Source: Limnothrix sp. RL_2_0 (GTDB taxonomy: Bacteria > Cyanobacteriota > Cyanobacteriia > Cyanobacteriales > MRBY01). Taken from it: a stretch of DNA of 34,597 nucleotides. The notes beneath the pieces were generated by a model. It saw nothing but the letters and a program-made list of their open reading frames with translations. It was not told the origin of the DNA and ran no database searches. The translations under genes and the position numbers were made by a program. The stretch lies in NCBI GenBank assembly GCA_012033055.1, contig JAAUPR010000036.1, positions 1-34,597 on the forward strand, read 5' to 3'. Of this stretch, positions 27,362 to 28,533 are shown one piece after another; position 1 is the first letter of the stretch; the number at the start of each line of letters is the position of its first letter.

Positions 27362-27556
27362 CTAGCCATGACTATAATTACCTTTTTTCTTGGCTTTCCA
27401 AGTGCCGCCGTATCGATAGTGGGGATTATTTTTGGCGATCGCCTGCCAGCAGTCCGGACAGACAAGTTGCCATGTGTGACTAGCATCACTCTGGATTCGA
27501 TAGCAAATAGCCGCGCTTTTTTGGCAATGGGCACAATTCTTTTCCCGGAGCCTCAT
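27362..27556 (-). CDS. Small double-CxxC (zinc-ribbon-like) protein
   Basis: 64 residues with C8-x2-C11 and C33-x2-C36, a fifth Cys at 18 and the end YRYGGTWKAKKK. Two CxxC pairs about 20 residues apart are the signature of a zinc ribbon, and HTWQLVCPDCW fits its second knuckle. Similar small proteins ending YGGTWKAKK are, from memory, common in cyanobacteria, with no known role. It is divergent from the gene at 27607 with 50 bp between starts, a gap that includes a HIP1 site. Confidence 0.8.
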   Translation of the reverse strand: MRLREKNCAHCQKSAAICYRIQSDASHTWQLVCPDCWQAIAKNNPHYRYGGTWKAKKKGNYSHG

Positions 27557-27606
27557 ACTCTGCTGGGCGATCGCCCCATGACGAAGATTATTTGAGCCGT
27601 AAAAAA

Positions 27607-28533
27607 ATGATATATCTTATGGCGGTTAATTTTTCTGGGAAGACGATGGCGGAAGCATTTGAAAAAGGTGGACAGCGAGCGTGGTTCCATGACCATGGCC
27701 ATTGGGGTGGATTTTTCCATACCTACGACAATCTCCAGATCTCTGGATTTGGCGCCCATTTCGATCAACCCCGCAAAATTCACGTTTTTATTCCCCGCGA
27801 TTACGAAGTCAGTGGCGATTGCTACCCCGTGCTCTATTGCAACGATGGGGATGATATTTTCTTTGCCGATGGTGCGTCGGGTCAAAGTTGGCAAGTGGCC
27901 GAACTCCTCAGCCGGATGTATCTCCGGGATCAACTGCCTAAAATGATTGTGGTGGCTATCTGTGCTGGCGATCGCCCCTACGAATATTCCCACATCCCCC
28001 ACAACGGCGGTGGCTTAGAAGACTATGGCCGTTACCTCGCCAAAGGACTTAAACCCTTTATTGACAGCAACTATCGCACCCAGCCCGAGCAAACCCTTCT
28101 CCTCGGAGCAGCCCAAGGCGGACTCGCCGCATTCCACACCGCCACCCAGCATCCCCGCCAATTCCCTAAAGTTGCCGCCCTTTCCCCATCCTTTTGGTTT
28201 GGCCTCGAAAAACAACTCAGTTTGCCCCAAGATTTAGAATCCACCTTTGCGATCGCCCTCCAACATTCCACCCTAATCTTTGCCGCCACACCGATCCTGA
28301 GCAATGGCGAATTACGTCCTCAAATTTATTTAGACTGGGGTGTAAACGCAGATGCCGACCATCCCGAAGAATCACGCACCCGACTCCGAGCCTTAGAAAT
28401 GCGTAAGATTCTCATCCAAGAATTTGGCTACCAAGAAAACGTCGATTTATACACCGTCGAAGATCTATTAGGCCACCACAAAATCGAGTCTTGGCGCGGA
28501 CGACTGCCAATGATTTTACAACTTTTTTTTTAG
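27607..28533 (+). CDS. Esterase D-like alpha/beta-hydrolase fold protein without nucleophile Ser
   Basis: About 308 residues from ATG at 27607 (in-frame ATGs at 27619 and 27646 and a TTG at 27592 are alternatives; the domain starts near 27646). It has the look of the putative esterase family (enterochelin esterase-like): RKIHVFIPRDYE, YPVLYCNDGDD, KMIVVAICAGDR, a strand-elbow LLGAAQGGLAAF and a late EDLLGHHKIESW with the candidate catalytic His. The elbow reads G-A-A-Q-G where relatives, as I recall them, have G-S-S-H-G, so the nucleophile Ser is Ala. The codons are unambiguous (GGA GCA GCC CAA GGC). The fold is otherwise intact, so it may be a non-catalytic binding protein or use another residue. 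Confidence 0.82.
   Translation: MIYLMAVNFSGKTMAEAFEKGGQRAWFHDHGHWGGFFHTYDNLQISGFGAHFDQPRKIHVFIPRDYEVSGDCYPVLYCNDGDDIFFADGASGQSWQVAELLSRMYLRDQLPKMIVVAICAGDRPYEYSHIPHNGGGLEDYGRYLAKGLKPFIDSNYRTQPEQTLLLGAAQGGLAAFHTATQHPRQFPKVAALSPSFWFGLEKQLSLPQDLESTFAIALQHSTLIFAATPILSNGELRPQIYLDWGVNADADHPEESRTRLRALEMRKILIQEFGYQENVDLYTVEDLLGHHKIESWRGRLPMILQLFF

What the first reader, a model, noticed from the sequence alone, without database searches (positions are those of the whole stretch)
28096..28131. Esterase-fold protein with its nucleophile Ser replaced by Ala
The elbow reads G-A-A-Q-G (GGA GCA GCC CAA GGC), while the surrounding strand, the IYLDWG acid region and a C-terminal His (GHH) are kept and the gene is fully open. 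Selection has maintained the fold without the usual catalytic Ser, which suggests a binding or regulatory role or a different chemistry. It is divergent from a double-CxxC mini-protein with 50 bp between them.
Basis: partly seen in the sequence, partly recalled or inferred. Interest (0 to 1): 0.52.

Follow-up and report, generated by a model that had tools for sequence, protein, structure and literature searches.

The report
Cyanobacterial esterase missing its catalytic serine
A gene in a Picosynechococcus-type cyanobacterium makes a well-folded esterase-like protein whose reactive serine has become alanine; relatives in the genus have also altered the active site while natural selection still preserves the protein, so it is probably no longer an ester-cutting enzyme.

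Summary
Window 27646-28533 (+) (or from 27619) encodes an intact PF00756 esterase-fold protein (E 1.3e-24; AlphaFold pLDDT 89.4; nearest solved fold Fes enterobactin esterase, Z 26.1) whose nucleophile position reads GAAQGG. Among 134 distinct relatives aligned, 125 have Ser there, 3 Cys, 3 Gly, 2 Ala, 1 no letter. In the genus (Picosynechococcus, by one named relative) the four intact copies have AQ, AQ, GH and SR, so none keeps the Ser-His pair found in 28 of 28 Ser-bearing close relatives; three more conserved acid-loop residues and part of that loop are gone too. The gene is under purifying selection (dN/dS 0.13-0.20 between two Ser-less species), but looser than its neighbours in that pair, reduced to a stump in one species and not found in another. 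Two other cyanobacterial lineages also have Gly for Ser. Best reading: a retired esterase kept for a non-catalytic, dispensable role; slow decay and Ser-independent His-Asp chemistry remain open. A new variant of a known kind (pseudoenzyme), of moderate interest.

The parts
27646..28533 (+). Ser-less PF00756 esterase-like protein, 295 aa from the conserved MAE start (304 aa from the ATG at 27619; TTG start possible at 27592)
   Evidence: AlphaFold model
28105..28122 (+). nucleophile elbow GAAQGG; A165 = 28111-28113 replaces the catalytic Ser, Q166 replaces the neighbouring His
28333..28374 (+). acid strand and loop D239-S252: D239 kept; R244, H249 and N250 of Ser-bearing relatives are changed and the loop is 3 residues shorter
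28477..28479 (+). H287, position of the catalytic His, kept
27838..27858 (+). loop CNDGDDI, residues 74-80; D79 replaces a Thr conserved in 27 of 28 Ser-bearing relatives
27362..27556 (-). divergent CxxC/CxxC mini-protein (64 aa); matches in 6 of 6 genus genomes, beside the intact esterase in G000, G002 and G004

Best explanation
It is a pseudo-esterase: an alpha/beta-hydrolase of the Fes/CE1 type (PF00756) whose ester-hydrolysing machinery was retired in the Picosynechococcus lineage. Shown by sequence: the Ser-His pair of the elbow is disrupted in every intact genus copy found, conserved residues of the acid loop are lost, the fold is predicted intact, and the reading frame is under purifying selection. 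Inferred: without a nucleophile it cannot form an acyl-enzyme, so what is selected is most likely binding of a ligand or partner in or near the old substrate pocket. The role is dispensable, since the gene is a stump or not found in 2 of 6 genus genomes.
For: A165 aligns with the Ser of solved hydrolases; 125 of 134 distinct relatives have Ser. Genus elbows AQ, AQ, GH, SR versus SH in 28 of 28 Ser-bearing close relatives. Of 86 conserved columns, 7 of 22 in active-site loops versus 3 of 64 elsewhere are changed in 3 or more of 4 genus rows (Fisher p 0.002; p 0.016, 0.018 and 0.035 with at least 1, at least 2 and all 4 rows); the nine other rows or pairs tested show no such excess (p 0.26 or more). 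Long stem to the genus (0.74 and 0.77 changes per site). dN/dS 0.13-0.20 between Ser-less G002 and G003 (43 nonsynonymous differences at 684 sites, 73 synonymous at 198, p 1.8e-24). Confident fold, Fes Z 26.1.
Against: G004 keeps Ser, so the loss is not complete in the genus (or Ser returned). In the G002-G003 pair the gene is several-fold less constrained than its five neighbours measured, and it is a stump or not found in 2 of 6 genomes, which fits weak constraint as well as a new role. The loop boundaries were set after the changed columns had been seen, so the Fisher p is optimistic. H287 and D239 are kept, but so are 64 of 86 conserved columns, so this says little. No ligand, partner or expression data.
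Confidence: 0.55

Rival explanations
1. A gene in slow decay: the esterase is no longer needed in this genus, the active site drifts first, and the open frames are survivors on the way to loss.
For: One genus genome has only a 31-codon C-terminal stump between rimK and the mini-protein (G005), another has no match (G001); broken copies occur elsewhere in the family (G300 with many stops, G594 in fragments, G041 and G417 with a stop before the C-terminus). The elbow residue varies A/G/S within the genus. For G002-G003 dN/dS is above that of all five neighbours measured (0.007-0.076).
Against: Four open frames with no stop across about 30% protein divergence; dN/dS far below 1 and inside the range of Ser-bearing family pairs (0.055-0.31 for 8 pairs, my ML ratios); changes shared by 3 or more genus rows concentrate in active-site loops. 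For the deeper pairs G000-G003 and G000-G002 the NG86 ratio (0.083, 0.102) is close to that of the neighbour DUF3352 (0.083, 0.091).
Confidence: 0.27
2. Changed chemistry: the His287-acid pair acts as a general base without a nucleophile, as in cofactor-free alpha/beta-hydrolase dioxygenases, where Ala naturally occupies the elbow in some members.
For: H287 and D239 are kept in the four genus copies. Precedent seen in passages of PMC10548524: in HOD-type dioxygenases the nucleophile is not essential and AqdC naturally has Ala.
Against: The elbow varies A, G, S and the next residue Q, H, R within one genus; R244, H249, N250 are lost; keeping H and D is no better than for conserved columns in general (64 of 86). 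The Pfam names of the window neighbours suggest no substrate pathway.
Confidence: 0.1
3. Still a hydrolase, by water activation or another nucleophile.
For: Fold and His kept; G004 keeps Ser.
Against: Apart from the Ser of G004, no Ser, Cys or Asp appears at or beside the elbow in the genus; the elbow residue is interchangeable.
Confidence: 0.05

Closest known systems
Fes/IroE-type enterobactin esterases and CE1 feruloyl esterases (PF00756)
   Same: Fold (Fes 3c87 Z 26.1, rmsd 2.2 over 226 residues; CE1 feruloyl esterases Z about 23), sequence family, position of His
   Different: Catalytic Ser is Ala; the alignment covers Fes residues 158-392 only, so the N-terminal part of Fes has no counterpart; the six other window neighbours scanned have no siderophore or carbohydrate Pfam names
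Cyanobacterial G[AS]SHGG esterase subfamily (e.g. Crocosphaera, Symploca, Hydrococcus copies)
   Same: 45-53% identity over nearly the full length for these copies, same N-terminal motif
   Different: Ser-His pair, Arg244 and His249-Asn250 loop kept there (27-28 of 28 rows), lost or disrupted here
Neuroligins and other non-catalytic alpha/beta-hydrolase proteins
   Same: Hydrolase fold without a functional triad (passages of PMC5943944)
   Different: A different branch of the fold (recalled); animal adhesion proteins; no binding partner known here
Cofactor-free HOD/AqdC dioxygenases
   Same: Ala at the elbow with His kept (passages of PMC10548524)
   Different: Elbow not fixed in the genus; no neighbourhood sign of such a substrate; direct sequence comparison not made

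Membership tests
PF00756 Esterase (as a homologous family) | Pfam profile match above the curated cut-off | tested here: met
   87.8 bits against 22, residues 47-300
PF00756 Esterase (as a homologous family) | alpha/beta-hydrolase fold | tested here: met
   pLDDT 89.4, pTM 0.90; Z 21.2-26.1 in the 50 rows shown, which are esterases and relatives
Active serine esterase of this family | nucleophile Ser in GxSxG | tested here: not met
   A165; Ser in 125 of 134 relatives
Active serine esterase of this family | catalytic His | tested here: met
   H287, listed as invariant in the 36-row alignment A2
Active serine esterase of this family | catalytic acid | tested here: inconclusive
   D239 kept; the acid-loop position 245 is Asp here but variable (E, D, S, K, T, Q, F) in Ser-bearing relatives, so which residue is the acid is unsettled
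Active serine esterase of this family | ester hydrolysis | not testable with these tools
   needs purified protein
Cyanobacterial SHGG subfamily | Ser-His pair, Arg244, His249-Asn250 loop | tested here: not met
Cofactor-free alpha/beta-hydrolase dioxygenase | oxygenolytic activity on N-heteroaromatics | not testable with these tools
   considered only as precedent

The most novel reading that the evidence does not exclude
The cyanobacterial SHGG subfamily has a selected function that never depended wholly on ester hydrolysis (ligand sensing or partner binding), which is why its Ser could be dropped in at least three lineages (Picosynechococcus, filamentous cyanobacterium ESFC-1, second copy in G492) with the frame intact; the Ser-bearing and Ser-less forms would then be natural wild-type/mutant pairs for finding that function.
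Probability: 0.25. Interest if true: 0.55.

Novelty: new variant of a known kind. Interest (0 to 1): 0.36.

Why it matters
I found no described bacterial pseudoenzyme of the Fes/CE1 esterase type in the listings of two searches of the open-access library (8 papers each, judged by title and start of abstract). Searches naming Picosynechococcus or Synechococcus PCC 7002 with esterase terms gave no paper that I could tie to this gene; one of them, PMC7329024, follows several PCC 7002 esterase genes by RT-PCR (passages seen), and I did not test whether any is its orthologue. A small family with Ser missing in three lineages, Ser-bearing sisters and a tractable genus (recalled) would make it testable what an esterase fold is kept for once its chemistry is gone. 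It is also a caution: Pfam calls this protein an esterase.

Tried and rejected
Functional linkage by neighbourhood: the window neighbours (protein kinase with TPR repeats, DUF3352, mini-protein, RimK-like ATP-grasp, PF05618 putative zinc protease, ABC-2 membrane protein, DUF4330; Pfam names) are largely shared within the genus, but in the eight regions outside it only kinase/TPR pieces matched, in two. The recurrent neighbour outside the genus was a DUF1499 gene (two of them confirmed by Pfam) just upstream on the same strand in 6 of 21 neighbourhoods, and elsewhere in a seventh; it does not explain the function. Other neighbours outside the genus were not annotated. The mini-protein as obligate partner: rejected.

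Simple ancestry of the Ser loss: gene tree and species tree both put G000 (Ala) with G004 (Ser) against G002 and G003. Either Ser was lost before the genus split and returned in G004, or it was lost at least twice in the genus; by my hand count the two histories need about equally many base changes (codons), so this is undecided. The shared GCC CAA of G000 and G003 suggests common descent but does not prove it.

Co-change of residue 79 with Ser loss (Thr to Asp, His, Lys or Asp in the genus and Lys in ESFC-1): dropped as a rule because the G492 second copy keeps Thr.

First genome-contig scan with the single protein found nothing; viral contigs none; plasmids only remote relatives, under 32% identity in the 10 rows shown. 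One search kept the best 80 of 404 relatives. The searches were samples of larger groups (386, 388 and 388 genomes). Rows dropped: L007 (truncated) and L067 were left out of the 28 Ser-bearing rows; L205 (fragment of G594) has no letter at the elbow; one search collapsed 168 loci to 134 by their last 200 residues; the tree used 41 of 42 chosen rows because L186 has the same tail as L066. Of the nine pairs outside the genus, L067-L006 was left out of the dN/dS range (L067 lacks Ser and dS is saturated). In one search the NG86 estimate failed for two rimK-partner pairs, and DUF3352 was not available for G004 and G005.

Full report
What is there. The window carries an open frame on the + strand (TTG at 27592, ATG at 27619, stop at 28531-28533). 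Close relatives begin at a motif MA[ED].F.KG, so the ATG at 27646 is the likely start. The protein matches Pfam PF00756 at E 1.3e-24 and its AlphaFold model is confident (pLDDT 89.4, pTM 0.90). The best solved folds by Z are Fes enterobactin esterases (26.1), followed by a Bacillus BES protein, an IroE-like hydrolase and CE1 feruloyl esterases; Foldseek ranks feruloyl esterases first. In the model the strand 154-164 runs into residue 165 and helix 166-177, the usual place of the elbow.

The nucleophile. The elbow is G163-A-A-Q-G-G168. Pairwise alignment to solved hydrolases places A165 on their Ser (three alignments shown). Over 134 distinct relatives the residue is Ser in 125, Gly in 3, Cys in 3, Ala in 2, and missing in 1 fragment.

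The clade. Of the six genomes of the genus held, four have an intact copy. The window genome and G003 have GAAQGG, G002 has GAGHGG, and G004 has GASRGG. G003 shares its contig length and this protein with NZ_CP016477.1, Picosynechococcus sp. PCC 7117, which is the only basis for the genus name. G005 keeps a 31-codon C-terminal stump between rimK and the mini-protein. In G001 no match was found in the genome and no significant one beside rimK (best E 0.05 in the part of the output that was shown). In the 28 Ser-bearing close relatives Ser165 and His166 are both invariant; no genus copy keeps both.

More than one residue. Of 86 columns conserved in at least 93% of those 28 rows, 22 are changed in at least one genus copy and 6 in all four (T79, T124, V194, R244, H249, N250). 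The loop after the acid strand is also 3-4 residues shorter. With loops defined as 74-80, 163-168, 239-252 and 284-291, changes in three or more genus rows hit 7 of 22 loop columns and 3 of 64 others (p 0.002; with at least one, at least two or all four rows p is 0.016, 0.018 and 0.035). I set those bounds after seeing the columns, so these values are optimistic. The nine other rows or pairs tested, ESFC-1 among them, showed no excess (p 0.26 or more). The genus sits on a long stem (0.74 and 0.77 changes per site, support 100/100).

Selection. Between the two Ser-less species G002 and G003 there are 43 nonsynonymous differences at 684 sites and 73 synonymous at 198 (p 1.8e-24), dN/dS 0.13 (NG86) to 0.20 (ML). 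Five neighbouring genes of the same pair give 0.007-0.076, so the protein is constrained, but less than its neighbours. In deeper pairs, where synonymous sites are near saturation, the contrast shrinks: NG86 for G000-G003 is 0.083, the same as for DUF3352. Eight Ser-bearing pairs elsewhere in the family give ML ratios of 0.055-0.31 (computed), so the Ser-less copies are not looser than the family at large. Other family members are broken in G300, G594, G041 and G417.

Repeated loss. Outside the genus, Gly replaces Ser in filamentous cyanobacterium ESFC-1 (L067, GAGHGG, 302-codon open frame) and in the second copy of G492 (L201, GAGRAG, 301 codons); the first G492 copy keeps Ser. On a 41-row tree built without the elbow columns, Ser/non-Ser needs at least 4 changes. 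Thus Ser was lost without loss of frame in at least three separate lineages. ESFC-1 keeps R244, H249, N250 and E289 and departs from the conserved columns at only four places, two of them in the loops. Selection could not be measured on ESFC-1 or L201, which have no close relatives here.

Context. The divergent CxxC mini-protein has matches in 6 of 6 genus genomes, but lies beside the intact esterase in only three of the four that have one; in G003 it is about 120 kb away. Outside the genus the surroundings differ. Each of the six genomes has one other strong PF00756 match elsewhere (E 6e-61 to 8e-58), besides weak ones in some, so another member of the family is still present; its elbow was not read.

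How it works, as far as can be said. Shown: the nucleophile and several conserved residues of the active-site region are gone, the fold is predicted intact, and the frame is under purifying selection. Inferred: no acyl-enzyme can form, so the kept function is most likely binding of a ligand or partner. Undecided: slow decay, or His-Asp base chemistry. For the latter I saw passages of PMC10548524: in HOD-type dioxygenases the nucleophile is not essential and AqdC naturally has Ala. For non-catalytic hydrolase folds I saw passages of PMC5943944, and for esterase genes of PCC 7002 passages of PMC7329024. Other papers were seen only in search listings.

Verdict.

Noticed in passing
L027, L203, L204 (genomes G147, G643, G550): A distant group of the same family has Cys at the nucleophile position (GSCAGA, GSCAGA, GACASA), with a His at the usual place: a possible Cys-hydrolase branch in cyanobacteria.
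   Followed up: partly
L201 (second esterase copy of G492): Paralogue with a GAGRAG elbow in a genome whose other copy keeps Ser.
   Followed up: partly
L067 (filamentous cyanobacterium ESFC-1): Ser to Gly at the elbow with the neighbouring His and acid-loop residues kept; residue 79 is Lys instead of Thr.
   Followed up: partly
L168 and L169 (G001): The kinase-TPR, DUF3352 and mini-protein block occurs twice, about 20 kb apart, in G001 with identical match scores.
   Followed up: no
window 27362-27556 (-): 64-aa double-CxxC mini-protein with matches in 6 of 6 genus genomes; only a weak UPF0167 match below the Pfam cut-off.
   Followed up: partly
L043, L054, L058, L062, L063, L065: A DUF1499 gene (Pfam-confirmed in L058 and L043) lies just upstream of the Ser-bearing esterase on the same strand in 6 of 21 neighbourhoods.
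   Followed up: partly
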